Below are positions 5,275-60,142 of a DNA stretch of 64,000 nucleotides, piece by piece. Both the position numbers and the translations under genes were made by a program. The notes under the pieces are model-generated. The model was not told the DNA's origin, did not search any database, and saw nothing but the letters and a program-made list of their open reading frames with translations. The stretch spans positions 2,108,001 through 2,172,000 of the forward strand of contig OY987247.1 in NCBI GenBank assembly GCA_963920765.1, written 5' to 3'. The stretch is from Ulota crispa (taxonomy: Eukaryota > Streptophyta > Bryopsida > Orthotrichales > Orthotrichaceae). Within the stretch, counting starts at the first letter, position 1. Every line of letters begins with the position of its first letter.

Positions 5275-5643
5275 TTAACCCCTAAAGGTCAAAGAGGACA
5301 ATTATTGTCTTTTTGGTGCAAGAAAAATAGACTAAGGGTTGGAAAAAAGCTTTTTTTATTCAATTTTTTTTCAAAATTGGTCATTGCAAGGTTTTTCACC
5401 ACAAAGTGCCAAAATTGGATTGATTGAAAGTCCTCATGTCTTCAAAATTGAAATTTGTGAAAACATTCACAACCATGGTTGATAAGTTCCCTCCTACCCT
5501 TCTTACAAATTTCATGTGGGCAGCATGCACTATTGACTTTTCCCACTTTTTGAAGCAATATTATAAGTTGGGCACAACTTAAGTATTGTAGCTGTACAGT
5601 ACAAGGCAAGCCACAACTATGGGCCCCAGCATTTAAGGGTTAA
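5275..5643. mobile_element. TTAA-flanked piggyBac-like MITE (copy 1 in window)
   Basis: TTAA at 5275-5278 is followed by CCCCTAAAGGTC; the right end reads GCATTTAAGGG followed by TTAA at 5640-5643. The two termini agree as CCC(C/T)TAAA. They are less similar than in other copies, so this may be a composite or an old copy. Confidence 0.5.
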
Positions 5644-6796
5644 ATGTGTTCAGTCTAGCATAGAGTGCACGTGTTTGAAGTTTCGAACATTCAATCAAAA
5701 CCTACACCGCCTCCAGATACAGATACAAGCAAAGCGAGTTCTTCGCGAAAGGAAAAGAAAATTACTAGTATCAAAGTAAAAAGACTCTGAAAGTATGAAT
5801 TGTAGTAAATGGACAAATTGGACATACTCACAACCAACGAGCACTGACTTCCGCCCTCACTGTTGGCATACTTCAAGAATTCAAATGTACACAAATTGGT
5901 CCATTAGAATGGACTTATTTAGATGGGTGGTATACAACCTTATAGCAAACACCCTAAACATCAGACAATGGGTACATACGGAGTCTAAGGATGGACAATA
6001 CCCTTCCATAAATTTTCATCACTTTCCTGTATAGTTCAAAAATAGATATTTCTTTGAGAAAATCAAAATTTGCTATTTGATTCCTACATTGTGACTAAGT
6101 TTGTACCTTTTAACAAGATGTTACATTTCCTTGGTGAAAATCTAATTAAAATTTAAAAATATCTATTTTACAAAATTTGGGCATACCAAAGGTCTCATTG
6201 AAATTTTTGTAGATCAAATTTTTGTTACTCAAGGGAGTTCTTTTTAGCATAGAAGATGTGCATATGGATGTTTCCTACATACTCATGCAATCACATCTCA
6301 AAAATTCATCACCAATATTTTTCAATCAATTATTGTGTAAAACCATGAACTTAATACAAAATAATCCACCAAAAATAAAGTTTTGATTTTTGAGAATTGA
6401 AATTTGGTATGCTTGATTGGGATTGCATAAAATCCAACATATAAGATTCAAATTAACAAAATACTAACTATACTCCATGCAATACAGATTCCTTCAAACT
6501 ACATAGGAAAGTGACTAAAATTTATGGGCGGGTACTGTCTAAACCTCTGATCTAAGACATAATCTATGATCACAATATAAACTTGCAACTCTCACAATGC
6601 TGCATACCACATCCGGATATCCGGATATCATACTCAGTGGTGCATCCGAACACCCTTTGCTTGACTTTGCTAACAAGAACTATACATAAACATTTGAGCA
6701 TAAAAATAACAATAACGACACTCAAGGTGCTGGTTTTAGGTTTCCTAGAAACGGAAGAAGGAAAAGCCGACACTTGAGCACAGCAAAACTTCACAA
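5644..6796. other. Intergenic, no feature recognised
   Basis: AT-rich sequence with only short open frames on either strand and no inverted-repeat ends that I could pair. It is the 3' flank of the minus-strand gene at 6797-7183. Confidence 0.5.
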
Positions 6797-7183
6797 TCAA
6801 GACTTCAAAAATAACCGTTGTAACAATGTCGCAACTCTCCCTTGTCTGTTGGCCTGTAGCGCTTCACCAGTCGCAGCTTCACCAGTCGCAGGAGGACGGG
6901 CAACCCGCCTGGGCGTCCCTCTCCAGTCGTAGGTAACGCCGTCTTTGAAGACGATGATCTCCTTATACTCCTGGAATAAGTCGGTTGACAGCAGCGGCAG
7001 CTCCTTCTTGCTGGCATTGATGAGGACGAACTCGCGGTACGTGGCGTTGGGGTCGCAGCGCAGGGTGTGGGTCTGTCCCGGAGTCAGCACGGCGAGATGC
7101 TTGAAGACGCCGGCGTTGCCTTCTTTCACGCTCACATTCTCCCCCTTCAAGTCGTTCCGCAGTTCGAGTTTATGCGAAGACAT
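6797..7183 (-). CDS. Small uncharacterised protein, 128 aa
   Basis: An intact minus-strand frame. I take the second in-frame methionine (MSSHKLELRND) as the start, because the 11 residues upstream look like leader translated by chance. Residues 1-95 alternate hydrophobic and polar residues as a compact beta-rich domain would (KLELRND, VSVKEG, THTLRCDPNATYREFVLIN, YKEIIVFKDGVTYDW). The last 30 residues are low-complexity, basic and Ala/Thr/Gly-rich. No signal peptide or membrane span. A 15-bp direct repeat (6861-6875 and 6876-6890) encodes a duplicated ATGEA in the tail. Base composition is GC-rich against AT-rich flanks, which supports coding. It resembles small plant proteins of unknown function, but I cannot name the family with confidence. 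Confidence 0.65.
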   Translation of the reverse strand: MSSHKLELRNDLKGENVSVKEGNAGVFKHLAVLTPGQTHTLRCDPNATYREFVLINASKKELPLLSTDLFQEYKEIIVFKDGVTYDWRGTPRRVARPPATGEAATGEALQANRQGRVATLLQRLFLKS

Positions 7184-7250
7184 TCTCGCAAATGTACTTG
7201 CTATTTCAAAGAACAATCACTACAAAAAGGTCAATTATTCCACACTTTAC

Positions 7251-7661
7251 TAAGGTAGACATACCCATTCCCAAGCGGCACACAATTTCGCATTCTATTT
7301 TGAGGTGTTCACTGTCCATTCTTGGATCAAAAGTGGAACAGTTGAACACTGCTTGCACAAGTAAAATTTGCCACATGTTAATTGTTAGGTTGTTTTGGGA
7401 GGGTTGGGATTGGAACTGTCAAATGTCATTATAGGAACACATCCAAGCAATTTCAAGGTTAATTTAAAGTTACTTTTGGGACCTGTGAGTTCCGCCTTTG
7501 CCCTTTAATATAAAAATTCTACAATACTTTTTCCACAAAAATGACGTTTTGTTTCATGATAGCTTGCTGAAAGGCTAACCCTAGAAATTATTTTCATGAA
7601 TTTTTTGAAACCTTGAGGTACCCCAAGCCCTTAAACGGTCGGGTATGGGTTTGTCTACCTT
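7251..7661. mobile_element. MITE of the TAAGGTAG family, 411 bp
   Basis: Left terminus TAAGGTAGACATACCCATTC and right terminus GGGTATGGGTTTGTCTACCTT are inverted copies. The interior matches 42690-42892 in inverted orientation. It starts 68 bp upstream of the start codon of the minus-strand gene 6797-7183, so it may overlap that gene's promoter. Confidence 0.75.
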
Positions 7662-8199
7662 GTGCATTAACAATCTACTAACCCCTCAATCACGCCATGC
7701 AATTGGAAACAGTTTTTGATATTTCTATTTATTAGAACAGATACAAAAACCCCTTTCAAGTCGTAGGCTTGGTTCACACAAGCAACTAGATAAAATTATT
7801 TCAAACCTCATTGATTGATATATCTATTTTATCCACTAAAGTGTTTGTACGTAGAGTTTGTTTAGTACTTCAACTTGCCATATCACCAGCAAACACAACC
7901 ACGTCAGTAAACAAGATAGTGAAATTTTGGGTCTTGCTATAAGGGTGGGTTTCAAACTTGTCCAGTAGATGGACACTCCTACTTTGTAACAACTTTTTTC
8001 TCCAACTCTATTGAATGACACAGAAGTGCTCTGGAAGATGAAAGATTATAAGGGGTGCTACTTTTTGTGTTTCGTCATGTGGCTAGGTTTAACCAGGCCT
8101 TATCTTTTTTATGTTTCAGTCCTTTTTTTTTGATGGGCTTCTTACATACTAAAGCGTGTATTATTTGGATATTACATGAAAAAGACCTAAATTTTCAAA
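7662..8199. other. Intergenic, no feature recognised
   Basis: AT-rich DNA between a MITE and duplication copy 2. No paired inverted repeats and no convincing coding frame. Confidence 0.45.
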
Positions 8200-9745
8200 G
8201 TTTGATTTGCAGAGTGAGTAAAACTGGGAACAGGTTTTTGACACTTCTACATTTGTAAGTTACTTAGATGTTTGAATTTCTACTTGTAGAAAACATTTGT
8301 TTCACTTTGTGTCTCTTTATGTCTACTAACAAAATCAGGACCTCATGTGGATACGGGAGATGCACCACCCTACAAACTATTACAAAGACTGACACGCTGT
8401 TGAAAAAGCTGATGGAGTACACAAGCAAAGTACAAATCAGGTGCACACATCCAAAAGGGACTAATCGGCACTTCTCCAAAGTGAAGGAAACTAGGAAAGG
8501 CTACACATTTACTTAGTAAATTATAGTTGAGCAGAGCCATTACACAATTATACAAACATCTGCAGACATGATACTCCTATTTCAAATTACATCTTGTTGG
8601 TACTTGAGTCTTTTGTAGAATTGAAGTACATAAGAACAAAACGAGTTCCTTGGTACTTTAGGTCCTCTCAAAGGGAAGAAATAGATGCGTTCCAGTACCT
8701 AAACAGAGTTGGGTCAGGAGGAACTCACCAATAGCAAAATACAAGTTGCAGAGGAAATCACGCTCCGGGCGACTAACCGGAAGGACAGTGACCGGAATGG
8801 CAAAGAATCCTCCAATGCGACAGAGGAAACCCAAGCATGAAAAGGAGGAGGAAAACGAGGACTACGACATAATACAGGGTAGTATACCACCGACAATGCT
8901 CCTTCTTTGGCCCGTCCGCACCTTCTTCCAGTTGCATAAAAACAAAAGCTTTCCCAGCTCTTCGTAGTGATGCGCCTCTGCGAACCGCGACCTGGTTCAA
9001 CCTCAGCCAAATCAAAGTCAGCACATCAGAAATGCGCAATCTAGCACACAACTAGACAATCCTGACATCGACACACCAGTCACGGAGGACGTCTCGATCC
9101 TCAGGGTTTTGGAAGCGCCTTCCAAGGAGCAAAGGGACTGGAGTTGAAATTTACCCAGCACACTCTGGAAATGGTCGGGAAATGGTCGAGAACAAAAAGA
9201 GAACTGAAACCCGCAAGAGAGAACACGGAACAGACCTGCAAGGAGCTCTGTTCGCTGGAGATGGTCGTCTGGAGCGACGAGATCTGCCACAGCTTCTGCC
9301 CGATGCCAGCGATGGTCACCAGGCTGGCCAGTACCGACAGACCGATGGGGCTCCACCTATTGTTGCAGTGCAAGAGGTTGCTCTGCGCCACGGCCGTGAG
9401 CACCACCCCCTGGAAGACGCTAAAGAAGCCGATCAACTGGTACACCTCGTTCTTCAAGTTGCCCACTTTCTTGGACTTACGGTCCACGCGCGACGTGAAC
9501 AGCTTCTCCTTGCGATCCCACTCCTCCAGCGCCTTGCGATGGATCAGGCTCTTCTCGATCAGCACCAGGTTCTTGATCTCCTTGTAGGAATACTCCTCGT
9601 AGTCCGCGTCTGGGCAGTCGGGGGGGAGGAGCCCTAGCTGCTGGCCCTCACCCTGGGCTTGCAGCGTAGTCCCGCGCCGGTTTGCAGTTGCCCGGGCTTG
9701 CCGCGCCGTCGCTTCCGCCCGGTACCTATTCTCCAGCTCCCGCTC
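8200..9745. repeat. Segmental duplication, copy 2 (less disturbed)
   Basis: Collinear with 1-3455 without the inserts that interrupt copy 1. The similarity covers non-coding DNA (8200-8700) as well as the gene, so this is a DNA-level duplication and not a retrocopy. The copies start about 8.2 kb apart, in the same orientation. Confidence 0.85.
8729..8880 (-). CDS. Candidate downstream exon of the two-membrane-span gene
   Basis: A minus-strand stretch ending at a GTGAGT-type donor (8724-8728). One frame reads a hydrophobic segment, GFLCRIGGFFAIPVTVLPVS, then RPERDFLCNLYFAI. Against copy 1 (donor at 2471-2475), three of the six substitutions in this part are synonymous third-position changes in that frame, which favours it as the coding frame. 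The acceptor and left limit are not resolved. Confidence 0.35.
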
Positions 9746-9925
9746 ATGCGCGTCGTACAATGCGAGGGAAGCTTCGGTAGGGAGATACACTTCCTCGTTG
9801 AATCTATGGAGGAGTGGTTGCTGCGGAGTGGAGCCCGAGTGAAGAGCGTCCGTTTCTTCGACGATGCCGTTCTCTACGTCGGGCAATGTTGGCCCTTGTG
9901 CTGGCCCGGTACTACTTTGCGCCAT
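9101..9925 (-). CDS. Two-membrane-span plant protein of unknown function, 5' exon
   Basis: An open frame of 274 residues starting MAQSSTGPAQGP. Residues 1-50 are low complexity. Residues 51-152 are charged and probably helical or coiled-coil (RELENRYRAEATARQARATA; YSYKEIKNLVLIEKSLIHRK). Two hydrophobic segments follow, about 161-181 (VYQLIGFFSVFQGVVLTAVAQ) and 193-209 (PIGLSVLASLVTIAGIG), linked by a short polar loop. The frame probably splices after residue 230 (SSEQSSLQ): CAG|GTCTG puts the exon end at 9236, so the last 44 residues as read would be intron. I recall uncharacterised plant proteins with a similar NEVYQL...FSVFQGV segment, but cannot name a family. The 3' exons are uncertain. 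Its duplicate at 2476-3455 is broken. Confidence 0.65.
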   Translation of the reverse strand: MAQSSTGPAQGPTLPDVENGIVEETDALHSGSTPQQPLLHRFNEEVYLPTEASLALYDAHERELENRYRAEATARQARATANRRGTTLQAQGEGQQLGLLPPDCPDADYEEYSYKEIKNLVLIEKSLIHRKALEEWDRKEKLFTSRVDRKSKKVGNLKNEVYQLIGFFSVFQGVVLTAVAQSNLLHCNNRWSPIGLSVLASLVTIAGIGQKLWQISSLQTTISSEQSSLQVCSVFSLAGFSSLFVLDHFPTISRVCWVNFNSSPFAPWKALPKP

Positions 9926-10365
9926 GGCTGCAAGGATCTGGCAGCCTCAAGGAAGGTGATCGCTGCCGCCCCGACCGACTGCAAGGCATCCTCGATGCTC
10001 GTACAGACACATCTTCGGAGAACCAGTAAGCGCTCCGACATCTGGATCGCTACCGATTCGGTGATCCCAATTATGACTTTTTGACTTTTAGCTCAAGTGG
10101 CTGACAGGCCGGCTAAAAACACTGCTCAAAAGGTAATTTTTAAAAATTTAACTTTGTAGAGTTCGCGTGCTCTTTCGCTGTATAACAATTTTGGTAGAAT
10201 TCCTGCGAAATTTAGCTGATCGCTGCTACCGAGGAAAGGGCTGATGCGTCATGCCTGGAATCGCGGATTCAGCGCTGCTCGGGGAGGTTTTTGAAAGGGA
10301 AAATATCGAAAATAGGCCTGCACAATTGGCCGTATTTTGAAAACAGACCTGATAATTAAAAAATT
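9926..10365. other. Upstream flank of the two-membrane-span gene
   Basis: This is the promoter side of the minus-strand gene. It is GC-richer to about 10.1 kb and then AT-rich. No motif that I can support. Confidence 0.4.
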
Positions 10366-10837
10366 GGGGAAATTACAAAATGAGTAACAAAAACAAAAGA
10401 AATTACAGTTTGGGTAACAATTTGAAAGTAATTATAATTTGGGTAACAAAATCCAATAATCTCAATGGATTTTGTAATTGTTGAAAGCGCAAGCCGTTGA
10501 AGCTCGCATCAACGTCATTGCCAGCTCGTCGTTGGTCATGATTTTTGTTCTCTCCATTGTAATCAAATTGTTGAAGCCAACATTGACGCCATTGCCAACT
10601 TGTCATTGGTCATGATCCTTGTTCTCTAAGTTGCCACTAATCACAACTTAGAGAACAAGGATCCTAACCAATGACAAGTTGACAATGGCGTCAATGCTAG
10701 CTGCAACGGCTTCCGCCTTCAATAATTGCAAAATCCATTGAGGTTATCAAATTTTGTTACCCAAACTGTAATTACTTTCAAACTGTTACCCAAACTGTAA
10801 TTTCTTTTATTTTCATTACTCATTTTGTAATTTCCCC
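10366..10837. mobile_element. Palindromic MITE, termini GGGGAAATTACAAAATGAGT
   Basis: The left end GGGGAAATTACAAAATGAGT returns inverted at 10815-10837. The two halves are complementary almost throughout, including TTAGAGAACAAGGATC around the centre near 10630. A relative is at 11772-12557. Confidence 0.8.
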
Positions 10838-11765
10838 TTAACCCCTAAAGGACCAACTATCTGTTCAACAAACAAGTGGGATTTTGGGCATGTACCTATG
10901 GCCAAACTACTTTGCATGATTTTTTGAATCTTTATTGAATATGGGGTCTTCAAAGATCTGCATGGGCATCTAATTTTTATTCCAAATGATGCCAGGGAGC
11001 AAAAGTTATTCCCAAATAAGCACTAATTTGGGGACTCTGAGCAGTAAAAAAAATTCTTCTAAAAACTTGAAAAAAAAATTAATTTTTTTTTTCATAGATT
11101 ATATCTTTGTCTACATCTGAAGCTTTGATTCATTCCATTTGGACTAGTTATGAGAAAGTTATGGACAATTTTGTTTTTTGGGCAATTCAAGCATCTTCTT
11201 GAAAAAATAAATTATAAACTTCATTTTTGAATGCAATTTTAACATTTTTTCAAAAAAAATTGTTGGAGAGGGTGAAGTTTGCTTTCTAGAATAATCTCAC
11301 CATTGGGATCATTGCATTTCAATTCCATTGCAAGGTTATTAGCAATTTAAGTTTCTATTCAATCTCATACCTACTTCTGCCTAATGTTTTTTTTAAGAAT
11401 GAAAATTAATTATTTTTTGTTTTTGTTTTTTTTCTAAGATTACCAACTCAACTTCCCACCATGCAAAAATAGAACACCAAACTCTATGGTGCAAAAATTT
11501 TAAGTGAAAAAATTTCAAAATTAAATAATCTAGTCATGCAAGGTGCAAAAAAAGCTGTTTTTTACTTTTTAAATGCAAATATCTTCCAACCTATATGGTC
11601 AAAGTTCTTGAGTTTTGTATGACACATTCTTATAGTAGTCTAGTATAAGATCCTATGGTTAGATATGCAAAAAGATTGATTTTCAAACTTTTTTACTCTT
11701 TACCATAGAGGTGGCAATTTTGAGTGTCTTTAGACACATAAAGGCCATGGTCCTTTAGGGGTTAA
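10838..11765. mobile_element. TTAA-flanked piggyBac-like MITE, 928 bp
   Basis: TTAA then CCCCTAAAGGACC at the left; GGTCCTTTAGGGG then TTAA at the right, a perfect 13-bp terminal inverted repeat with a TTAA on each side. The AT-rich interior shares blocks with the copies at 17601, 53040 and 57676, for example CTTCAAAGATCTGCATGGG. No open frame of transposase size. TTAA target sites with CCC...GGG termini are typical of piggyBac elements (family knowledge); assignment is inferred. Confidence 0.75.
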
Positions 11766-11771
11766 AATATT

Positions 11772-12557
11772 GGGGAAATTACAAAATGACTAACAAAAAC
11801 AAAAGAAATTACAATTTGGGTAACGATTTGAAAGTAATTACAATTTGGGTAACAAAATTTGATAACCTCAATGGATTTTGTAATTGTTGAGGGCACAAGT
11901 CTTTGAAGCCAACACTGATGCCATTGCCAACTTGTCATTGGTCATGATTCTTGTTCTCTCAGTGGCATGCGATTAGTTGTGACCCTTGCTTGCACTTAGC
12001 AACCAATTTTTGCCAAATAATTGTAGATCGCACACTATCAAGGAACAATCACTTATCTTTTGCTCACAAGTACCACTTCAAAACTTCAACCTCACACACT
12101 CACTTGTTGCATCTCAATCATGGACGTGCATTGCGCACCGTTTCATTGATATTCCGATCCACTGCTACTTATGAATCAACTAGGCAGACGATGTGCAATG
12201 CACGTCCATGAGTGAGACGCAACAAGTGAGTGTGTGAGGTTGAAGTTTTGAAGTGGTACTTGTGAGCAAAAGATAAGTGATTGTTCCTTGATAGTGTGCG
12301 ATCTACAATTATTTGGCAAAAATTGGTTGCTAAGTGCAAGCAAGGGTCACGACTAATCGCATGCCACTGAGAGAACAAGAATCATGACCAATGACAAGTT
12401 GGCAATGGCATCAGTGCTGGCTTCAAAGACTTGCGCCCTCAACAATTACAAAATCCATTGAGGTTATCAAATTTTGTTACCCAAATTGTAATTACTTTCA
12501 AATTGTTACCCAAATTGTAATTTCTTTTGTTTTTGTTACTCATTTTATAATTTCTCC
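11772..12557. mobile_element. Near-perfect 786-bp palindrome, MITE
   Basis: Ends GGGGAAATTACAAAATGA and TTTTATAATTTCTCC. The arms are about 370 bp (to 12141 and from 12187) with a loop of about 45 bp. They are so alike that both strands carry the same chance open frame starting MFSQWHAIS. High arm identity implies recent formation. Transcription would give a long double-stranded hairpin RNA. Confidence 0.8.
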
Positions 12558-12574
12558 TAAAAAATATGAAAAGT

Positions 12575-17366: not shown

Positions 17367-17604
17367 TTAACCCCTGAGAGCCATATTGGTCGCTCAATTT
17401 TGAAAAATGTCCATGTTTGACTCTTATCCTCTTCTTAATGGTAAAGTTAAAGGACTTGTACTTTTTCATGTACCTTCAGGCATGTGTCTACTACCACTCA
17501 AAAAAAATTCAAGCTATTTGACTCTACTTAGGCAATACTTTTATTGGACTAAGTACACAAGAGTATGGATTTGAGTGAATATGGCCTGGGCGCTCAGGGG
17601 TTAA
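17367..17604. mobile_element. TTAA-flanked piggyBac-like MITE, 238 bp
   Basis: TTAA-CCCCTGAGAGCC at the left and GGCGCTCAGGGG-TTAA at the right. The right TTAA (17601-17604) is also the left TTAA of the next element, so one has inserted at the other's target site. Confidence 0.7.
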
Positions 17605-18519
17605 CCCTAAAGGACCAAGCCCTTTTTTTGTGAAAGTTACTGAAAACTGCCACTTTTTGGGGAATGAGTACAAAGGTAGGAAAAAAGTTTTTTTTGGAAA
17701 TCCAATTGTAAGATCTTGCCCTAGAATATGGGAGGTACTTGTGGGAAAAAAATCAGCTCATTCTAGAATGTAGAGGAGTGACATACTAACATCTGAAGTG
17801 CAAAAAAAAGTTTTTTTTCCTACTGCCCAAACATTTGAAGAGCCTTTGATTGCTTCTAAATCAAAAGAATTGCTTTATGCAAAGTTGAGGTTTATCTTTT
17901 CCATGTAGAAGACCAAGTTAGGTAAGCTATAGAGAATTTTCAAATGAATTGGAGGTGTCAACCATACTTTGTAAAATCTTGCAATGCCGTTAGGCCATGA
18001 AATTTGCACGTAAAATTGGAGGATTTATGTAAAATCCAAAAATATGAATTGCTTTGATCCAAATGGTGAAAACCAAGGAATCTTAGTCCACTACAACTTG
18101 GAAAAAAATGAAGTCAAAAAACAAATTCACAAAGAGCTCAAAAAAGTAAAGCACCAAAGGCAAAAGGAATGGAGGTATGGGACTCCCATACTTGCCCGCA
18201 AACTAAAACTTTTCACTCTTAAATTGAAATTGAATGATTCTAAGTTCTTACATATGTATAGATCTAAAGAACCAATTTCAGATTTTTATTTTTTAAAAAT
18301 GAAATTTTTAAAAAAGTTTTTGGCTACTTGCCCTCCCTTGTTTTTCAAAAATTAATGCATAACTTCTTCAATAAATATTGGAATGAAGGAAAAATTAGAT
18401 GCCCATGTAGATCTTTGAATTCCCCATTTTCCAAAAATCACGCAATTTAGTTTAGCCATAGGTACGAGCTCAAAATCTCATTTGTACCCTTTAGGGATAA
18501 TGGTCCTTTAGGGGGTTAA
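17601..18519. mobile_element. TTAA-flanked piggyBac-like MITE, 919 bp
   Basis: TTAA-CCCTAAAGGACC at the left and GGTCCTTTAGGGGG-TTAA at the right. The interior is similar to the 57676 copy. A chance open frame at 18044-18355 lies within it and has no recognisable domain. Confidence 0.75.
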
Positions 18520-18896
18520 ATGCCAAGGAAGACATTGTCCTCTTGTTCCAAAAAAAGATTCTATACTACAAAAAAATTGTTTTTCATTTGCTCTATTTTT
18601 TAGAAGTGATCATAAACACGTGATCCATCATGGAAGGCAAAAAATAGTCTCATTAGATGCACTCATATTTTTAAATAACCCAAATTGTGAGGAGGTTCAA
18701 AGACACAACTTTAGGTCCAAAGCTGCCCTTCTTGCAATTTTCATGAAGGCACCATGTGCTGTTGGAAGGCAAAGCACTATTGACTTTTACAGCATCAGGA
18801 AATAATATTGTAATTGTATAATATTATAATTGTTGGACACTTGCTGCTATTGCTATTGTAGAGAGTACTGTGACCAGCCCGACGTTTGAGGGTTAA
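18516..18896. mobile_element. Partial TTAA-type element (ATGCCAAGG subfamily)
   Basis: Starts TTAAATGCCAAGGAAGACA, which matches the inverted right end of the 29759-30897 element, and ends GTTTGAGGG-TTAA at 18893-18896. The interior block CATCATGGAAGGCAAAAA is shared with that element. Its outermost CCC at the left seems to have been separated by the neighbouring insertion at the TTAA inside its terminus. Confidence 0.55.
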
Positions 18897-29758: not shown

Positions 29759-30897
29759 TTAACCCTTAACCCTTCAATTCTCAAGGCACCATATTATGGT
29801 GTTGACCATATTTTGAATTTCTATAGAACCTATCTAAGTTGCTATTTTTAGTAGATTTTATTTTATAATTTTTTTTTGTTGAAGTTTAGTTTTAATATCA
29901 AAAAATTGATTTTGTAAATGATTGACTATAATTTTTCTTTTCAAGGTTTTGTGCAAGGGTGCCCATTGCCAAAGTTTTTTCTACTGGCAACCATAAGGAG
30001 ATTTTGTGCAATCAAAAAAAGTCCCTCCAATTAAAAACCATTCAAATGCAACCAGATGAGCATTCGGTCGCCAATAGAAGAAGCCATGCCCATTGCAATC
30101 TTGACTTTTTTAGTGTTGAGAGCTCTTAGAAATGAGCCTCAAATACACTAGACCTTGGAGAAAAAATTACACTAGAAATTCATTTGAAATAATTGTAGAG
30201 ATTTTGAAAAGCCATAAATTGATTGGAGTTATGTATGTTATGCCCTTTAACCCCATATTTTTCATGTGACCATTCTTTTAGATTTGACATGTGAAAAGAG
30301 GATTGAAAGACTTCAAGTCACTTTCACAGTTTTAACACCCTCTTGATTGAACATTATGATCTTTCAATCCATACTTGATATTGTTGTGTTTTCTTTTCCT
30401 ATGTGATCTCTACACATGTAGTTTGATTTTGTACAGTTACAATTTAAAACATATAAAACAACTTATCAAAAAATTTAGGTTTTTGTTCAAGTTAAAACAA
30501 GTTCCTAGAAGCTCAAAAATTGCCTTGGGCATTTAGGGATTAAGCGCATGGCGGGTGACCGCAGCCTGTCCTCATTGTAGCTTCTACAATGTTTTTAGAG
30601 GTGGGCACTAGTAGTGTTGTTTCTCAAGGTTGCAAAATAGTGCTTGCTAACCTCATGAAAATTGTAGTAAGGGCAACTTGGGACCTAACACTGTAACTCT
30701 TAATTTTCTCACAATTTTGGGTTATCTAAAATAATGAGTGCATCAAATGAGATAAATTTTTGCCTTCCATGATGGACCATGTGTTTATGCTCACTTCTAG
30801 AAAAAGAAATCAAATGAAAAATGGCTTTTCATGTCACGCAAAATGTTTTTTCCAAAGCCACAAGACATTTGTTTTCCTCCTTGGCATTTAAGGGTTA
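29759..30897. mobile_element. TTAA-type element inserted in the 29680 MITE
   Basis: Left end TTAA-CCCTTAA, right end TTAAGGG-TTA(C), a TTAA site with one changed base on the right. The right subterminal CTTGGCATTTAAGGG identifies it with the 18516-18896 element. It is itself interrupted by 29766-30543. Confidence 0.6.
29766..30543. mobile_element. TTAA-flanked element nested inside 29759-30897
   Basis: TTAA at 29766-29769, then CCCTTCAATTCTCAAGGC; the right end is GCCTTGGGCATTTAGGGA, then TTAA at 30540-30543. It sits in the TTAA that forms part of the outer element's own terminal repeat (CCCTTAA). Confidence 0.6.
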
Positions 30898-31227
30898 CAT
30901 TAGGATGAGAAAATACAAAATACTGGCATCACTTTGAAAGTTCCAATTGCAAGCTTTAATTCACAAAGATTTTTCAAAATCCCAAATCATTAAAAATGTA
31001 TAGTTGTATGTAGGAGATGTCTTTAGTGTGCTCATACGCTCATGATACCAACTTGAGGAGTTTCTTAAATAGTGAGATGGGGCACTCAAAACTTTCATGT
31101 CAATCACCCAAAACCATCACTTTGTCACTCCTAACCAAATTTTTTTTTTCAATTGTCAGTCACTGACATCACTTGCACAAGTAGGTATTGGGGATGTGAA
31201 CATTAACAATGAGGGGTGCTCCTACCT

Positions 31228-31537
31228 TAGTGCATTTTAGTTGCCTTGACAATTAGGTTGCTTTAAATTGACAAACTTACTTCATGTCTCACTCTTGGCC
31301 ACTTGGAGGGCATGCAATTCTCTTCATGCTATTGTAATTCTTGGTTTTATCTAAAGCTATAGTTTTTGTACTCCCTAACTTTGGTGCTTGTTACTATGCC
31401 CAACCTTTGCTTATATCCTCTGTTGTTTATCAAGATAATTATTGGCAAACTTTACTGTAATCTTGGTAAATATTTGAATAGTGTGAAATGGAATTAAGAA
31501 ATTAGTATGGGGCAACCTAAATGCACTATTTAGTGTA
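31228..31537. mobile_element. MITE of the GTGCATTTAGGTTGCC family
   Basis: Left TAGTGCATTTTAGTTGCC and right GGCAACCTAAATGCACTATT followed by TAGTGTA are inverted. The interior matches 51223-51539 in inverted orientation. It abuts the 29680-31229 MITE. Confidence 0.6.
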
Positions 31538-40480: not shown

Positions 40481-41806
40481 TTAACCCCTAAAGGACCAAG
40501 TGGTTGCTCAATAGCCACTTGAAAACTCTGGTAGGGTCGTATGGAGTTAATTTTTATTGAATGTTCTCAAAATTGTTACACAAGGTGCAAAGATGTTTTT
40601 CCCAAATGGAAATGTAAATTTTCCCCAATTAGATGCTTGGTTCAAAAGTTACATTGCCCACAAGAAATTAGGCAGCTCGAGTAGTTTTGGCATCTTTGGA
40701 GAATCTTATGCTAAAATTCTCATCAACTTTTGAAATTTGACAAGTATCTAACTAAAAAAACATGATGTACAATTGTCAAAAAAAAATTGAGCTCTCACAT
40801 CACAATTTGAAGGGAGTCAAACTTTGTTAACCATGTTTTGGCAGTTTCAAGAAAAAAAAAACTCTTCTAACTTTAGGTCCTATTATCTTTCAATTTATAA
40901 ATCCAAAGCTCTGAAAATTTATTTTCACATATTTCAAATGTTTGCCTCTAACTTTCCACCTTTTAGATTTCAAATAAAAGACTTCCTCATTGCACAAGAA
41001 ATCACAAAAGAATGACTTGTGTATTGCCAATTCACTAAACCTCCTTGCATTGCAGGGTGTTTTAAAATAAGCTAGATTCTATATTTATATCTAAAAATTT
41101 TCATGAGTGAACCTAACATCATATAATTGTGCATGGTCATGAACCTCATTTTTGTGTAAGGTAGGTGCACCCATAACCGTGGAAATAAGGCTTTTGGAGT
41201 AGGTAAAATAATTGAACAACTTTGAAAAAAATACTATAAGTTAGGAAATGGAAACCAAAAATATTGGCATCAATTTCAGGGTTCCAATTGCAAGCATTTG
41301 TTCACAAAGATTTTTCAAAGTCCAAAATCACTGAAATTGTAAGGACCATGTGTAAGAGATGCTAAAAACAAGGCTTGCTAGTTCTCAAATAGTGAGATGG
41401 GTACTCAAAACCATCATGGAGTCACCCACAACCATCACTTTGTCACCCATAAATATCACTTAAGTATCCATAAGCACCTTGACATTGTCAGTGACCCCCA
41501 CGGGGACTTCACACCCATGGGTGCGGCTACCTTATAGCAAAGAATTTACTCTAGGAAGGCTCAAAGTCTGCTGACCTTGTTTTGCAGGCATGAAAAAAAG
41601 TAGTTTTTCTCACTTCAAAAGTTATAATCTTACAATACGCGTGTCAAATGGGCAGGATTTTTGTTTCCATGTTAATTTATATACTTTACACACTTTTATA
41701 TGGTTGAAATTGAGAAAAAAAGTTTTTATTTTCAATTTTGGGCAATGCACTAAAGTTGACAGTTTTTGAGATTTTTTCTCAAAAAACACCCTTGGTCCTT
41801 TAGGGG
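40481..41806. mobile_element. TTAA-type piggyBac-like MITE with a nested MITE
   Basis: TTAA-CCCCTAAAGGACC at the left; GGTCCTTTAGGGG at the right followed by TCGT, so the right TTAA has changed. Subtracting the nested 41157-41534 element leaves about 950 bp, close to the 928-bp copy at 10838. Confidence 0.7.
41157..41534. mobile_element. MITE of the TAAGGTAG family, 378 bp
   Basis: Left TAAGGTAGGTGCACCCATAA, right CATGGGTGCGGCTACCTTA. It is the uninterrupted counterpart of 29680-31229 and is inserted within the TTAA-type element 40481-41806. Confidence 0.75.
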
Positions 41807-49623: not shown

Positions 49624-49663
49624 TCAATCGGTTGCGATTAATGTGCACGAGCACCTTGCCTTC

Positions 49664-50061: not shown

Positions 50062-50429
50062 ACGGCGCCGAAGGCATTCTCCAACAACGTCGATAACAAC
50101 CGAACTCCTTGAAAATCAAGAAACCTCAAAGCGAAATAATGATCCAAACACTCCGCCTCTTCTCTTTGTCTTCGATATACAAAAAACTGATAACCTAAAG
50201 GGAAAAGGCACGTGTCAACCGAAGAACTAATCTGCAAATAACGGCAGGCTACGGCGCTGAAGACATTCTCCAACAACGTCGATAACAACAGAACTCTCTG
50301 AAAATCAAGAAAATTTAAAGCGATATAATGATCCAAACACTCCGCCTCTTCTCCTATCTTCGATATACAAAAAATTGATAACCCTAACGGGAGAAGGCAC
50401 ATGTCATCCGAAGCACTAATCTACAAATA
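50062..50429. repeat. 189-bp tandem duplication
   Basis: ACGGCGC(C/T)GAAG starts at 50062 and again at 50251. The two units align over their length (for example TTCTCCAACAACGTCGATAA and ATGATCCAAACACTCCGCCT), with substitutions and a shorter second unit of about 179 bp. ACGGCGG at 50430 looks like the start of a third. No coding role is clear on either strand. The flank 50430-50879 has one minus-strand frame (50452-50664) that looks mildly protein-like, but nothing that I can name. Confidence 0.8.
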
Positions 50430-50879
50430 ACGGCGGACACAACTGTGTATCTTAAAATTCTAAAGCCATTGCAATTGCATCAAACATCAAAGCATTCACG
50501 TTTGGATCTTTGCGTAATTGGCAGTAGTGAAGAGAGTTGCACATGGATTTTGGAGAAAGCAAGGGCTGTCGCGAGTTAGTTATGGCGATTGGATGGAGAA
50601 GTTGATGAGACTGCAGCGTGCGTCTCGAGGCCAAGCAGTCCTGGAAGTTACGAAGCTTTCTCATGAAGCTCCATCTTCGTCTCTCTCGATGAGGAGCAGG
50701 GGATGCCGTGGACGCTTCAATCGAACAGTGTGAACAGGTCTATTGAACACATCTATTATATGCCTCAAATCTGATATTATGTAGTGGTAGTGTACATTCT
50801 AGATTCTAGAACACAAGAATATAATGCTGGTACATGAGGGTGGAATTGTTATACGGATGGTAATAAATGTGTTCAATTT

Positions 50880-51198
50880 TAAGGTACGAGCACTCATAAG
50901 CGTCAAACTAAGGGTTTTGAACATGATGATTATTAACAAACATCTAATAAATTATAAGATCCTATTAGGAACAGAAAAAATATTGAGTTTGCATTTTTGA
51001 ATGTATTATTTGGATATCATGAGAATAAGTTGTGAATTTGTAAAGAGCATATTGTCATTGCACCTATAACCACTTTCAAGGTTTCATGTTCACATGTTGT
51101 ACATTCTTGTAATTACATCTATTCATTTCCACAGATTTTTCAAGATTTCAAAGGTGACGATTATGGGGACAATGATGCTTATGGGTGTTCCTACCTTA
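50880..51198. mobile_element. MITE of the TAAGGTAG family, 319 bp
   Basis: Left TAAGGTACGAGCACTCATAA and right TTATGGGTGTTCCTACCTTA are inverted. Closest in its ends to 29680-31229. Confidence 0.7.
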
Positions 51199-51222
51199 TA
51201 TGAAGATGGAAGTGGAAAGAAC

Positions 51223-53039: not shown

Positions 53040-53766
53040 TTAACCCCTAAAGGCTTAAAGGCCCTTTTGGGGGACAAATGGAATTTTGGGCATGTACGTA
53101 TGGCTAAACTACTTTGCATGATTTTCTGAAACTTTTATTGAAGGTGAGGAATTCAAAGATCTACGTGGGAATATAAAAAAATCTTCATTCCAACATTCAT
53201 TGAAGAAGTTAAAAATGAATAATTGAAAAATTGGGGACTCCGGGCAGCCCAAATACTTCCGTAAAAATTGCGTTTTTTTCAAATAGAAATTTGAGATAGA
53301 TTCTTTAGACTTATATGGACGTGGGGAGCTTTGAATCATTCAATTCTGATAGATGAGATGAAAGTTATGAGAAGTTTTAGTTTGCGGATAGGTGTGATTT
53401 TGCTTGAAACCACAACTACCCAAAAACTAAAACTTCTCATAACTTTCATCTCATTTATCAAAATTGAATGATTCAAAGCTCCCCACATCTACATAAGTCT
53501 AAAGAATCTATCTCAGAATTTTTTTTGAAAAAAACGCAATTTTTACAGAAGTTTTTGGGCTGCCCAAAGTCTCCAATTTTTCAATTATTCATTTTTGACT
53601 TCTTCAATAAATGTCGGAATGAAGAAAAAATTACATTCCCATGTAGATTTTTGAATTCCTCACTTTCAATAAAAATTTCAGAAAATCACGCAAAGTAGTT
53701 TAGCCATAGGTATATGCACAAAACTCCATTTGTCCCCCAAAGGGACAATGGGCCTTTAGGGGTTAA
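53040..53766. mobile_element. TTAA-flanked piggyBac-like MITE forming a long hairpin
   Basis: TTAA-CCCCTAAAGG at the left and CCTTTAGGGG-TTAA at the right. The inverted arms extend far inward, about 340 bp each, nearly complementary (GCATGATTTTCTGAAA and TTTCAGAAAATCACGC). The two chance open frames at 53109-53339 and 53468-53698 are the same sequence on opposite strands. Confidence 0.8.
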
Positions 53767-54304: not shown

Positions 54305-54342
54305 AGGTGAAACCAACATCCATCAATTCAAGACAATGACAT

Positions 54343-54704: not shown

Positions 54705-56004
54705 TTATTTAGGTGGAAAAGACAGAAACAAGTTAAATTTGGACAACCGTATGTAAATCTTCATTTGACATAGAAACCTTTGCTGTAAATTGTAACTAAG
54801 TCCAGTTAATTACTACAACTTTTCATATAGTATCTAAAACATCTCTTGGATTCAAATCAATTTGCAAGTTCAAAATATGCAAAAATATTAAATGCATCTA
54901 AAGTGATTTTGTGAGTGAAGTGCTATTGCAAGTTGTATTTGATAAGTGTAGCAAAGACCATTTATCGTGAAAATTACAGTTTGGATCACAGTTGATAACC
55001 ACATTGGAGATGCCATGGATTTTCCAGTTGCAGCATCATCAAAAAGTACCATACTTGAGCGAAGAAGATGATATTATTAATTACACTCCATGATTCTATA
55101 CGACGGGTAACTCTTTGGAGAGGGAAGAATAATACAAACAATTTGGCAACATACAAAATAAAGTATAGGAAACACAAGGTGCAACACCTGTTGGAGAACC
55201 ACGACATTCACAAAGTGAAGACCTCAAAAACGAATCAAAGGCAAGACTAGCAACAAGATGGAAAAGATTCTTGAGCATGCACCCAAAATAAACTAGGAAA
55301 GGGCTTTCATTTAAATATTTTCTGTTCACTCTACTGACACCCCAGATCAGCAACTGAACAATGTAGGGAATATTTGCAACCTATGGGGATAAAAAAATGA
55401 AGTACTACAAATTTGACAACCCCACTAAAATAAAAATGATAACCTTCATTATGAAAGGCAAACTCCACCTTCAATTTTTAACAGATTGGATCCCCTTCGA
55501 CTTCCCTGATTCCTGTGATTCCCCGCATGTTTTGGTTGGCGTTGAACGTTCTCAAGTACTGTGTTTCTCCAGACGGGTGAACTAAAAATGACGACACCAC
55601 CACTCAAATTCATCAGCAGCAATTCTCCAAGAGTCCACTGAAACACCGATAAATAACCACCTATGCAATCCAATAACGCACAGCTATCTTTTGATAACAA
55701 GAAAAGTAGTGATTACAACACCAAATCAGATCGAACGAAGGAGAACAAACCAACGTGGGATCTTTACATGCTAGAAGGTACTTGTCCATGGAGCAACAGC
55801 ACCCTTGATATATGCAGACTTATCCCACTATAATCGATATTACGTGAAAGAAAAAAGAACAAGCGAAAACAAAAATTGACGCAAGAGATATTCTTTGCAC
55901 TGCACTTTCAGAACGTTACAGGATTTGCCGGTAGCCAGCATTAGCAGCACAACTGCTGTATGCGGCTGTTCTAATTCTATCCAGAAACCATCTCTGAAGA
56001 AAAC
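54705..56004. other. Unique-sequence flank downstream of eS7
   Basis: It holds the 3' region of the minus-strand eS7 gene near 55.9-56.0 kb. The rest has no gene or MITE that I can support. The minus-strand open frame 55449-55700 lacks recognisable features. Confidence 0.45.
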
Positions 56005-57107
56005 TTAAGCGGCAACAGCCTCCTGAATTGGATACTCGAAAGTGACTTCTTTGCCAGTCAGCTTCTTGTATACTCCCGCATACGTCTCCAACTTGTACTC
56101 CGTGCTGTTACGTTCCTTGGGGTCCAAGTACACACGCATGATGCGAGACCCATCCAAACGATAGCGCACCCTCTTGCCTACAATCTCTGAGGGGTAGACC
56201 ATATCCTCGAGAATAGCCTCGTGAACAGAGGTCAGAGTCCTGCTCCTCGGCCTGTTGACGGCTGAGCCCTTCTTAGGGGGTCTCAAGATGCGCCTGGTGG
56301 AAATAACAACAACATCCTGCAAACAGAAAAAAGCAAATCAATTCAGATTCATTATGAAAGGAATGAATCTCCGTAGTCACAAGCTGAAGATAATCCAACT
56401 CAGAAGTACTCTATAGCTGACCTAGCTCCATCCATATACTAAAAACCTACGTGTTAATACACGTAACCTCACCAACTCTTAGACATAAATCCAGTGCACC
56501 AAACCCTAATTGAACATTCTCATCAACACTATCAACTGATTGCCCTGGCAATGGAATGGAAATGAACGTCATAAAGCGCCAAAGCGATGTACGAAAAAAG
56601 GCAAACACAAAGCTGTTACTTCCAGAATCTATACTCGCTTCAAACTTGTAGATTGGTGGCGTTAAGAAAGAAATGGCGGCAGAAACCCTAATTAGGTCAA
56701 ACCCTAGTTCAATGTGCTAGCATCGAAAACATAGAGGACCATAGCACAGCAGCAGTACTAAAACGCAAACGCGATAACTGCAGGATGAAAACACATGGAA
56801 AACCCTAAGGCCAACACAGACACACACACACCTTGCCGCTGAACTTCTTCTCAAGCTCCCTGACGAGGCGAGCGTGGATCTTCTGGAAAGCCTTGCGCAG
56901 GCGGTAAGGCACATGGATGATGACGGCCTTGCGGTTGCCAGAAATATCGACTTCCTTGGCAGAGTTGATGAAGAGGTCGCGGAGCTCGCTCTTGAGCTCG
57001 GAGTTGGTGGACTCCAGGTCGAAGAGAGCCTGGGCTACGGACTCCTCGAACTCATCGGGCTCCTGCCCCTTCTCCTTCTGGATCTTCCTGCGCGCGGTGA
57101 ATGACAT
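56005..57107 (-). CDS. RPS7: Small ribosomal subunit protein eS7 (RPS7), 195 aa, two exons
   Basis: Exon 1 is 57107-56832 (92 aa, starts [20 protein letters not shown]) and exon 2 is 56316-56005 (103 aa, ends YPIQEAVAA). They are joined by a 515-bp GT-AG intron in phase 0. The whole chain matches the eS7 family: the acidic N-terminal helix, the core [20 protein letters not shown], the RRILRPP loop, and [20 protein letters not shown]. Length is as usual for plants (about 190). It is a structural protein of the 40S subunit, in the cytosol, also required for 18S rRNA maturation. No damage seen. The donor lies in a (GT)n run. Confidence 0.98.
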
Positions 57108-57295
57108 GGCTGCGAAAGGAGGTTGCCTCAGGGAGAGGACGGGGTTGATGCACCGGAGCCACTGCCTGCAGCAAGGGGTGCGAGTGAAAGAGGGATTTCT
57201 GTGGAGGCGCTGGGGTGTCTTTGTCCCAGGCGAGCGAGACGGACTCCGAACCCTTCGGCCGCTGCCTCGCGTCCGCGGTCGCGGCCGTCCGAACA

Positions 57296-57304
57296 TTAGG
57301 GTTT
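57296..57304 (-). promoter_or_regulatory. Telo-box AAACCCTAA upstream of eS7
   Basis: AAACCCTAA on the minus strand, 189 bp upstream of the eS7 start. Telo-boxes are common near the transcription start of plant ribosomal protein genes (established knowledge). Between it and the ATG the minus strand is pyrimidine-rich in places, as in ribosomal-protein leaders. Confidence 0.6.
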
Positions 57305-57675
57305 CGTCTGCATTCCTCGTCCGACGGGTTTGAAGCTTCGTTAAGTCCCTAAAGGACTTGATCCATTCTGAAATGGTCAAACTTCACGTCTAAGCTTGAA
57401 TTTGCCTTTTAAAGTGTGTTCAAAACAACAATTTTATATTTTATTTATTGAAACTCTATGAAAGATATATCACTGCAAGAAATTTCAATTTGTTTCACGT
57501 TAAAATAGCAAAAGAAGTCCAAATTCCTTGTAATTTTTTTGAGGGGTACAAGTAACTTTAAAGATTAGTGTGAAAAAATTTCAATTGGTTATTTTATTTT
57601 GTACACCCCAAACAACCACAACAAAGAGTTTAAAATCAAATTTGACTATCAAACCAAATTCATCCTTATATTTAA
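57305..57675. other. Upstream flank of eS7
   Basis: Turns AT-rich after about 57.4 kb. Nothing else is recognised before the TTAA-type element at 57676. Confidence 0.4.
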
Positions 57676-58611
57676 TTAACCCCTACAGGATTGAATCATT
57701 TTTTTAGTGAAAATCACTCAAAACTGTCACTTTTGGGGGGTTAGTAAGAAGGTAATTTTTTTTGAAAATTTGGCAAATCTAACCACAAGATTTTGCCCTA
57801 GATTAGATTAGGTACTTGTGCAAAAAAAATTAGGTCATTCCAGATGGACATGAGTGAGATATTTACTTCTAATGTGAAAAGAAATTTTTTTTTCATGCTG
57901 CCCAAAAATTTCAGAAGCCTTTGACCATTCTTACATGAAAATAATTGCTCTACGCAACTTTGCGCTTTATTTTTTCCATGTAGGAGATCAAGTTAGCTAT
58001 GTGTGGGAGAACTTTCAAATCAATTGGAACTACACAACACATGGGAAAAACCAATAAGTAAAAAGAAGTAGAGAATGAGTCAAATCACTAAATTGTTAAG
58101 AATTTAATTATTAAAATGAAAAATGCAAATCCCAATGGTCATAATGTTGTGATAAACAATCTACATCCTTTGATTTTGTTTGTTTTCCAAAATAATGAAA
58201 ATTGAGTAAAATAAAGAACTTCAAAGTTTATTTTAGAGTAGAGATTCCATAATTGCCCGCAAACAAAAACTCCTCATAACTTTCATGTCAGTGATTGAAA
58301 TTGAATGATTCAAAGCTTCTCACCTATAAAAAAATCTAAAGAACCAATTTCAATTTTTGATTTAAAATTTTTTAATTTTTAAAAAAGTTTTTGGGCTGCT
58401 CAGGTGGGCAATCCTCACTTGCTTTTCAGATTTTCATGCATAACTTCTTCAATAGTTGTCGGAATGAGGAAAAAATTAGATGCCTGCGTAGATCTTTGAA
58501 TTCCCCGCCTTCAATAAAAGTTTCAGAAAATCACACAAAGTAGCTTATCCAAAGGTACATGCCCAAACTCCCACTTGTCCACCAAAGGGACAACAGTCCT
58601 TTAGGGGTTAA
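57676..58611. mobile_element. TTAA-flanked piggyBac-like MITE, 936 bp
   Basis: TTAA-CCCCTACAGGATT at the left and AGTCCTTTAGGGG-TTAA at the right, TTAA intact on both sides. The interior is shared with 17601-18519 (left part) and 32877-33790 (middle). Confidence 0.75.
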
Positions 58612-59310
58612 TTTGTAAAATTTTGATCTTTTTTACCAAAAGACACATTCATTTTCTATTTATATTGATTTTTTCAATAAATTTGATGGGAATTTTGAGT
58701 TATTCTGATTTTTAAAAAATAAATGTGAAAAAAAAAAAATCTATTAGAATATGTATTAAAAAAGCTATAATTTCTACCATAAATGAATGGTAGAATGAGA
58801 AATATATTTTTGAAATTTTTATTTAAAATGAATTTAAAGAGTAGAAAATATGAATGAAAAACAGACCATATTGTGTTATTTGGATTCTTATACTTGGAGC
58901 TTTTAATGGCAATAACTCTCTCCATTTTTGACATTTTTCAAAAAAAAAGAAATGCAATAAAAAGGAAACTTGTCAAGCTTCATTTTCTTAATTTGAACTA
59001 TGTACCAAAAATTGATATTTTGAAAGTCACAATTAGGGTTGATCAAGGCTCAACCACTTTTTGGATGCACGGACCTTCAAGGGTTAACAAAGAGGTCAAC
59101 ATAAGAATTATTAATAAAGTAGGAGGTAGGAGGCTCGTAAATGGAGCATCTAATGGCTAGTATTGAATTTTGGGTTGGTGAAACTTCTTGAGATATTTTT
59201 CAATAAATTTTCCTTGAAAGACAAGAAGAGTTCGCATCTAAACCAAGTTGTTTCATATTTTTTGGAGCTTTGTGGAATTAGTTATGAATTTTGAAGTGGA
59301 AAGGCCATAG
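58612..59310. other. AT-rich intergenic with one isolated TTAA-type terminus
   Basis: GGACCTTCAAGGGTTAA at about 59072-59088 resembles a right terminus of the TTAA family, but no partner was found. Otherwise featureless. Confidence 0.4.
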
Positions 59311-59424
59311 GGCTCTAAAATGGAGCACCTCCTCAAGTGTACATCAGTTCTACATTATTGAAAGGCTATGAAAAACAACATGCACAAATGGAGTACATTT
59401 GAGGAGGTGCTCCATTTTAGAGCC
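59311..59424. mobile_element. 114-bp MITE with 26-bp perfect inverted ends
   Basis: Begins GGCTCTAAAATGGAGCACCT and continues CCTCAA; the right end is its exact complement ending AGAGCC. A worn relative of the terminus is near 59127-59155 (GGAGGCTCGTAAATGGAGCA). Confidence 0.8.
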
Positions 59425-59426
59425 TG

Positions 59427-59575
59427 CACTACAAGAAATTGTGTCCTAATTGATATGTTCAAAATGACCAAATGTGTCCAAATTGACAAAATTGTCAAAT
59501 TGGGCAATTTTGGTAGATTTAGACATGTTGATTTGGACATATTTTTTGTCATTTTGGACAAATTCCCTTGTAGTC
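59427..59575. mobile_element. CACTA-like MITE, 149 bp
   Basis: Left CACTACAAGAAATTG, right CCCTTGTAGTC. The interior repeats variants of AATTGACAAAATTG and TTTGGACAT. Ends of the CACTACAAGAAA type are characteristic of CACTA (En/Spm) elements. No 3-bp target duplication is clear. Confidence 0.6.
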
Positions 59576-59712
59576 TTGCTGCAAATCAGAGCTTCCTACC
59601 TTAGGTGATGACAGTTTTTTTAAATTACCAGATAGTTAATTACTTGATAGGTCACCTAACAAAGTTATCACTTTGTACTCTATTCCCACATTCTACCTTA
59701 TTGAACTATTAA

Positions 59713-59863
59713 CACTACAAGAAAATGTTGACAATTTGGTCATTTTTTGTAGATTTGAACATGTCAATTTGGACATTTTTTTATCAATTCGGACACTTTT
59801 TATCAATTTGGACAAGTTTAGTCAATTCAAACATGTCAATTTGGACACTATTTTCTTGTAGTG
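59713..59863. mobile_element. CACTA-like MITE, 151 bp
   Basis: CACTACAAGAAAAT at the left and ATTTTCTTGTAGTG at the right, a perfect 14-bp inverted repeat. The interior resembles the 59427-59575 element. Flanking triplets TAA and ATT do not match, so the target duplication is lost or the ends are shifted. Confidence 0.7.
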
Positions 59864-60064
59864 ATTAGATTTAAATTCATGTTTCTTTACGTTTTTATTG
59901 GCTTTTTACCCATCAAAATTAGGAAAAAGTCATAATTTTTTTGAATTTCAAAAAGTAATTAGGTAAAAATTAACAATCTACAAAGAGGTTCAAAATTTTA
60001 ATTGATGAAAACGATAAGTTTAAATTCTAATTTTTTCATTCATTTATAATGAACTTTCTTATTT

Positions 60065-60142
60065 TTAACCCTTAAATGCCCATGGTCCCATATTTCAATG
60101 TTAAAAACACCACATTCTTGTGTCATGGGCATTTAGAGTTAA
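60065..60142. mobile_element. Minimal TTAA-flanked element, 78 bp
   Basis: TTAA-CCCTTAAATGCCCATG at the left and CATGGGCATTTAGAG-TTAA at the right with about 40 bp between. The smallest member of the TTAA family in the window, with intact TTAA on both sides. Confidence 0.65.

What the first reader, a model, noticed from the sequence alone, without database searches (positions are those of the whole stretch)
5275..60142. A family of TTAA-flanked, CCC-terminated elements: piggyBac-like MITEs in a land plant
At least ten elements (5275-5643, 10838-11765, 17367-17604, 17601-18519, 18516-18896, 29766-30543, 40481-41806, 53040-53766, 57676-58611, 60065-60142) start CCC(C/T)TAAA or a close variant, end with the reverse complement, and have TTAA next to both or one end. 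Seen directly: the ends and the TTAAs. Known: strict TTAA duplication with CCC...GGG ends is the piggyBac hallmark. Inference: these are non-autonomous piggyBac-type elements, a superfamily I believe is rarely described in land plants.
Basis: partly seen in the sequence, partly recalled or inferred. Interest (0 to 1): 0.8.

Follow-up and report, generated by a model that had tools for sequence, protein, structure and literature searches.

The report
piggyBac-type miniature transposons in a moss
The moss genome that this window comes from is full of short mobile DNA pieces with the hallmarks of piggyBac, a kind of jumping gene best known from insects and other animals and little described in land plants.

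Summary
The assembly matches the moss Ulota crispa (two scaffold lengths match to the base). Eight of the ten claimed elements recur in the genome or in held loci; four were queried with flanks, and in most listed copies homology stops at or within some bases of the stated ends. 17367-17604 is plausible; 18516-18896 is not a bounded element. TTAACCCCTAAAGGACCA occurs 18,030 times with at most one mismatch (reversed control 0). Of 8,876 exact CCCCTAAAGGACCA sites, 7,555 follow TTAA. Two insertions compared with 20 related uninterrupted copies show 2-4 bases there (one is TTAA), where the filled site has TTAA on both sides. The genome has at least 120 DDE_Tnp_1_7 (piggyBac) transposase matches. 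One 5,027-bp transposase-bearing element with TTAA/CCC ends has a second copy. Nine of 27 elements share about 350-530 bp, from the terminal TTAA inwards, with the 3' end of a transposase locus. So these are piggyBac-type MITEs: a known kind, in a little-described host, at striking abundance. A complete parent and current mobility are not shown.

The parts
5275..5643 (.). 369-bp piggyBac-type MITE, ends TTAACCCCTAAAGG / TTAACCCTTAAATG
   Evidence: 36 of 39 long genome matches bounded near the two ends
10838..11765 (.). 928-bp MITE, TTAACCCCTAAAGGACCA at both ends; sits in a TTAA between two copies of a foldback repeat
   Evidence: (86% full-length to L011 and L027)
17367..17604 (.). 238-bp plausible element, TTAACCCCTGAG at both ends; shares its right TTAA with the next element
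   Evidence: only one mirrored pair of weak matches
17601..18519 (.). 919-bp MITE; left arm homologous to the 3' end of transposase locus L065
   Evidence: (35 of 40 long matches bounded near its ends)
18516..18896 (.). claimed element; left end lacks CCC; not supported as a bounded element
29766..30543 (.). 778-bp MITE carrying a nested insertion of about 117 bases (about 29970-30086)
40481..41806 (.). 1326-bp copy of an about 950-bp MITE family, carrying an about 375-base insert flanked by TA; right TTAA absent
53040..53766 (.). 727-bp palindromic MITE; both arms of one type (the arm opposite to the L065-like one in asymmetric MITEs)
57676..58611 (.). 936-bp MITE; left arm homologous to the 3' end of L065
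   Evidence: (39 of 39 other long matches 90-92%, essentially full length)
60065..60142 (.). 78-bp miniature element
   Evidence: 39 other listed copies bounded near its ends

Best explanation
The elements are non-autonomous piggyBac-superfamily transposons (MITEs) in a moss. A piggyBac transposase made by larger relatives elsewhere in the genome recognises the CCC(C/T)T...CCA-type ends, cuts the element out at the flanking TTAA and pastes it into another TTAA, leaving one TTAA on each side. The long asymmetric MITEs (about 920-960 bp) look like internal-deletion derivatives that keep the two outer parts of a transposase-bearing element; a palindromic class (about 730-750 bp) carries two copies of one arm. 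Shown: ends, TTAA flanks, four-base target duplication at two sites, boundaries, abundance, transposases with the same type of ends, homology of one arm to transposase loci. Inferred: mobilisation in trans, the cutting chemistry (by analogy with piggyBac), and the internal-deletion origin.
For: ends, chance; genome counts, TTAA fraction; boundaries; full-length copies; filled versus uninterrupted sites; at least 120 PF13843 matches, 0 of 14 control genomes; 5,027-bp transposase-bearing element with inverted TTAACCC(C/T)TCAT(C/T)GCC ends; a second copy 90% identical, homology stopping at its ends; end-oriented TTAACCC downstream of 12 of 20 transposases, opposite orientation in 3 of 20; arm homology to the 3' ends of L065 and L066 from the terminal TTAA inwards, at nearly the same distance from the transposase in both loci; 31 (IDEMM, DNFF/DNYF and GVDVA(D/S)Q blocks, and a Cys-rich tail); 45 (one transposase frame matches piggyBat and piggyBac among solved structures); 46 (three frames match PF13843).
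Against: No transposase copy with TTAACCCCTAAAGGACCA and both MITE arms was found. L065 and L066 match one arm only (about 72-80%), and their 5' ends were not located; 11 of 27 elements tested show no such arm match to L065 and 7 only a short one. 8 of 20 transposases showed no TTAACCC end in the stretch read, and L040, L042 and L043 showed one end only, L041 none. Only 1 of 20 fetched uninterrupted relatives has TTAA itself. By my count 110 of 120 transposase matches contain stop codons (introns are read through, so not every stop is damage), including the two copies of the 5,027-bp element. No movement was observed.
Confidence: 0.95

Rival explanations
1. The elements belong to another TIR superfamily with TA or TTA/TAA targets (Tc1/mariner or PIF/Harbinger), and TTAA is only a preferred context.
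For: TTAA contains TA, and a TA-flanked insert does occur in the window.
Against: The linked transposases are DDE_Tnp_1_7. 85% of exact ends keep all four TTAA bases, and the duplicated unit in the two dissected insertions is four bases. A TTA/TAA direct repeat does not fit GGGGTTAA on the right side.
Confidence: 0.03
2. The CCCTAAA ends are scattered plant telomere-like repeats, not transposon ends.
For: CCCTAAA is the plant telomere unit (recalled).
Against: Homology extends over whole 78-960 bp units with sharp boundaries and one arm of nine elements matches a transposase locus.
Confidence: 0.01
3. A refinement, not an alternative: several piggyBac transposase lineages are at work, each following its own end variant (CCCCTAAAGG, CCCCTAAATGCCC, CCCTTCAA, CCCCTGAG and others).
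For: Transposase loci have different ends: TTAACCCCTCATCGCC, TTAACCCTTCACCGCC, TTAACCCTTTAGCGACC, TTAACCCCTAAGCGCC and others; the 8 top loci share little DNA similarity.
Against: Which transposase moves which end was not tested.
Confidence: 0.6

Closest known systems
piggyBac superfamily (T. ni piggyBac, bat piggyBat)
   Same: TTAA target with duplication, CCC-start inverted ends, DDE_Tnp_1_7 transposase; one moss frame matches piggyBat (9c0f, E 2.5e-20) and piggyBac (6x67, E 7.2e-19).
   Different: Host is a moss; the one transposase-bearing element found with both ends is 5,027 bp, against 2,472 bp for piggyBac IFP2 (length as printed in the abstract of PMC10803768, listing).
piggyBac-type MITEs of animals (for example the coral MITEs of PMC2872659; only the listing was seen, with 57 mentions of piggyBac; details recalled)
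   Same: Short non-autonomous elements with piggyBac-like ends at TTAA (recalled).
   Different: Land plant host; thousands of ends of one variant; palindromic and asymmetric classes built from shared arms.
Stowaway and Tourist MITEs of plants
   Same: Small, high-copy, non-coding, inverted ends.
   Different: TA (Stowaway) or TAA/TTA (Tourist) targets and other transposases (Tourist TSD as in the passage of PMC10004981; the rest recalled).

Membership tests
piggyBac superfamily | TTAA on both sides of the element | tested here: met
   both sides in 8 of 10 window elements with CCC-like starts; 7,555 of 8,876 exact ends genome-wide
piggyBac superfamily | one TTAA before insertion, two after | tested here: met
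   two insertions: the filled site gives a 4-base overlap, TTAA; of 20 fetched related copies 18 have 3-4 bases and 2 have 2 at that point, one being TTAA. Related repeat copies, not orthologous sites
piggyBac superfamily | inverted ends beginning CCC | tested here: met
piggyBac superfamily | DDE_Tnp_1_7 transposase in elements with the same ends | tested here: met
   arm homology. One transposase copy with both ends of the main MITE family: not found
piggyBac superfamily | conserved catalytic acidic residues | tested here: inconclusive
   blocks IDEMM, DNFF/DNYF, GVDVA(D/S)Q seen in three read-through translations (L066 has S in the last); their assignment to the piggyBac residues is recalled, no formal alignment of these three was made
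piggyBac superfamily | C-terminal Cys-rich zinc finger | tested here: inconclusive
   of two tails, one hits zf-Tnp_2 (E 0.0013, 19.7 bits, below the cut-off of 24), the other does not
piggyBac superfamily | footprint-free excision through TTAA hairpins | not testable with these tools
   needs an assay
MITE | short, high copy number, sharply bounded | tested here: met
   78-960 bp units
MITE | derived from an autonomous element | tested here: inconclusive
   one arm of 9 of 27 elements shared with the 3' end of transposase locus L065; the other arm not found on a transposase locus

The most novel reading that the evidence does not exclude
piggyBac is a dominant DNA transposon of this moss, and perhaps of mosses generally, overlooked because plant annotation schemes sort MITEs into five superfamilies without piggyBac; many transposase lineages with distinct end variants coexist and have spread palindromic and asymmetric short derivatives over the genome.
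Probability: 0.4. Interest if true: 0.65.

Novelty: new member of a known kind. Interest (0 to 1): 0.5.

Why it matters
piggyBac is a major genetic tool and a source of domesticated genes in animals, but its natural history in land plants is thin. A moss with at least 120 transposase matches and about 18,000 recognisable ends of one variant gives material to ask when and how the superfamily entered or persisted in plants. It also suggests that plant MITE catalogues without a piggyBac class may mislabel such elements. The genome note of this assembly has no word beginning 'transpos' or 'repeat' in its main text.

Tried and rejected
Considered and rejected: Tc1/mariner or Harbinger origin (linked transposase, four-base target); telomere-like repeats (sharp whole-element boundaries); chance (shuffles).

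Led nowhere: the 5' ends of L065 and L066 could not be placed: their mutual homology begins about 0.9-1 kb before the transposase block, without a TTAACCC end. The first eight transposase loci held no TTAACCCCTAAAGGACCA-like end (up to 4 mismatches) within their 1.5-kb flanks. L064 has long homology to the w40481/L009 family, but this lies between two TTAACCC ends upstream of the transposase and is most simply a MITE copy sitting beside it, so I do not count it as a link. Mirrored hit pairs looked like large palindromes; the two that I fetched are 99.9% inverted copies near a 200-N gap, probably assembly artefacts. The paper with DOI 10.1093/gbe/evw292 is not held.

Rows dropped: the 30 loci are the first places listed on contig C1, not a random sample; 11 of the 30 had no facing partner end and were left out of the 27-element set, as were window elements 18516-18896 and 60065-60142. 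An earlier count gave 39 + 39 spanning copies and 13 of 20 ends; the calls bear 38 + 38 and, for TTAACCC, 12 of 20.

Full report
What the window is. The window is G000:C6:2108001-2172000 of an assembly of 274.8 Mb in 157 contigs. The LEAFY DNA-binding domain is present, and its residues MRDYVHC and GAWCQACY are those that I recall as the moss type. So the host is a land plant, very probably Ulota crispa.

The observation. One search read all ten claimed elements. Eight have TTAA plus a CCC-like start at both ends; 40481-41806 lacks TTAA on the right; 18516-18896 lacks CCC on the left. TTAACCCYTNA occurs 15 times in the window, against a mean of 0.45 and a maximum of 4 in 100 dinucleotide shuffles.

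Boundaries. I queried the genome with several elements plus flanks; each list holds only about 40 best-scored copies. For 5275-5643, 36 of 39 long matches outside the window start within 4 and end within 9 bases of the stated ends. For 17601-18519, 35 of 40 long matches (83-85% identity) start within 4 and end within 7 bases. For 29766-30543 most copies come as two pieces that begin near the left end and stop near the right end, around a nested insert of about 117 bases. The 78-bp element 60065-60142 is a repeat of its own: 39 other listed copies start at 68-83 and 38 of them end at 148-165 of a query in which the element is 81-158. The 936-bp element 57676-58611, queried without flanks, has 39 of 39 other long matches at 90-92% identity over essentially its whole length. 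10838-11765, 40481-41806 and 53040-53766 have full-length relatives among held loci. 17367-17604 has only a mirrored pair of weak matches and 18516-18896 only two short partial ones.

Abundance. TTAACCCCTAAAGGACCA with at most one mismatch occurs 9,071 + 8,959 = 18,030 times; the pattern read backwards occurs 0 times. At about 0.93 kb per pair of ends this would be roughly 8 Mb, or 3% of the genome, for this end variant alone (inference; not every end has a partner: 11 of the first 30 loci had none within reach). Exact CCCCTAAAGGACCA occurs 8,876 times, and 7,555 of these (85%) follow exact TTAA.

Target site. Of 30 joined-flank sets, three (L021, L027, L037) had related uninterrupted copies among the DNA then held. 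I searched two of them in the genome. The filled locus gives two pieces, 1-164 and 161-324, a four-base overlap; the other 38 long matches listed for each query run through the insertion point. I fetched the 10 best-scored for each. At the insertion point the ten L037-site copies have four bases: TTGG in 7, TTAG, TTGA and TTAA in one each. The ten L021-site copies have four bases in 2, three in 6 (TC-A in 5) and two in 2. So 1 of 20 is TTAA itself. I read this as insertion into repeat copies that had TTAA at that point, with duplication of those four bases; these are related repeat copies, not orthologous sites. For L027 a window relative at 41261-41476 shows a single TTAA, though the alignment ends 15 bases beyond it. 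In the window, removing 10838-11765 with one TTAA leaves TTAAAATATT between two foldback repeats, 9 of 10 bases equal to TTAAAAAATT at the left edge of the first.

The transposase. The genome has at least 120 matches to PF13843, DDE_Tnp_1_7, the piggyBac transposase family (best E 1.3e-73; 0 of 14 control genomes). By my count 10 of the 120 rows are without stop codons; some of these are partial and some are two pieces of one locus. In L039 the transposase lies between TTAACCCCTCATCGCCAA and the inverted TTAACCCTTCATTGCCAA, 5,027 bp apart. A second copy on C10 is 90% identical over 5,029 bp, and the homology begins and ends at those ends, though the second copy's left end reads TTCA; both transposases are interrupted. 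L040, L042 and L043 each show one end of the TTAACCC type, and L041 none. In a further set of 20 transposases, read downstream only (6 of them among the first 8 loci), 12 have an end-oriented TTAACCC within about 2 kb of the domain, against 3 with the opposite orientation. The uninterrupted 365-aa frame of L041 matches piggyBat (E 2.5e-20) and piggyBac (E 7.2e-19) among solved structures.

The link to the MITEs. One arm of nine of the 27 elements tested aligns over about 350-530 bases, from base 1 of the TTAA inwards, at 74-80% with the 3' end of transposase locus L065 (w17601, w57676, L012, L017, L020, L024, L030, L033, L035); 7 more show 22-132 bases and 11 none. L066 gives up to about 450 bases with some of the same elements. 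L065 and L066 are alike in the transposase (65%) and the 3' end (71%), at nearly the same distance from each other, so a MITE that landed beside a transposase by chance is unlikely. The opposite arm recurs at both ends of the palindromic elements w53040, L013 and L036, and, shorter on one side, L029. I read these as internal-deletion derivatives plus arm-duplicated derivatives. The 5' ends of L065 and L066 were not found, so the complete parent is not shown. w40481, L009, L014, L021 and L037 form a further family without long homology to L065; their homology to L064 lies beside its transposase and looks like a MITE copy.

Comparison with what is known. piggyBac-like elements are said in passing to occur in plants (passages of PMC8086355), PiggyBac is listed among the DNA transposon superfamilies in a plant review (passage of PMC10794571) and among angiosperm MITE superfamilies in another (passage of PMC10004981). 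Repeat tables give 1,230 copies (122 kb) in the fern Ceratopteris (passage) and 1 in Stipa (passage). A survey of MITEs in 207 plant genomes, four of them bryophytes, uses five superfamilies and has no 'piggybac' in its main text (passages); a 2025 review of plant MITEs has none. In the listings of the searches for piggyBac with bryophyte, moss, Physcomitrella, Viridiplantae and mosses I saw no paper on piggyBac MITEs in a moss; most subscription papers and all preprints are outside that library.

Verdict. These are piggyBac-type MITEs in a moss: a known kind, in a host group where it is little described, at striking abundance. Activity today, the complete parent element and the spread among mosses remain open.

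Noticed in passing
window 10366-10837 and 11772-12557: Two copies of a foldback repeat with GGGGAAATTAC ends, separated by element 10838-11765 and flanked by near-identical 10-base TTAAAAAATT/TTAAAATATT; looks like a Mutator-type foldback element with a 9-10 base target duplication (my reading).
   Followed up: partly
window about 41157-41533, also 30920-31230 and near 50880: An about 375-base insert in element 40481-41806 with inverted AGGTAGGTGCACCC-like ends and TA at both sides; related pieces elsewhere in the window and in L027, L030, L033, L042: probably a second MITE family with a TA target.
   Followed up: partly
window about 29970-30086: A nested insertion of about 117 bases in element 29766-30543, flanked by the direct repeat GCCCATTGC.
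   Followed up: no
L090 and L091 (C4:13987800-13995100, C10:8622700-8627400): Mirrored hit pairs with equal or nearly equal scores (six pairs, three). The two fetched are 99.9% inverted duplicates near a 200-N gap, probably assembly artefacts at foldback repeats, which may inflate copy counts a little.
   Followed up: partly
L041 (C2:34591900-34599000): A transposase frame without stop codons and with no TTAACCCCTAAA-like end (up to 3 mismatches) in the 7.1 kb read: possibly a host gene derived from a piggyBac transposase.
   Followed up: no
window 50062-50434: Two tandem copies of a 189-base unit, 89% matching.
   Followed up: no
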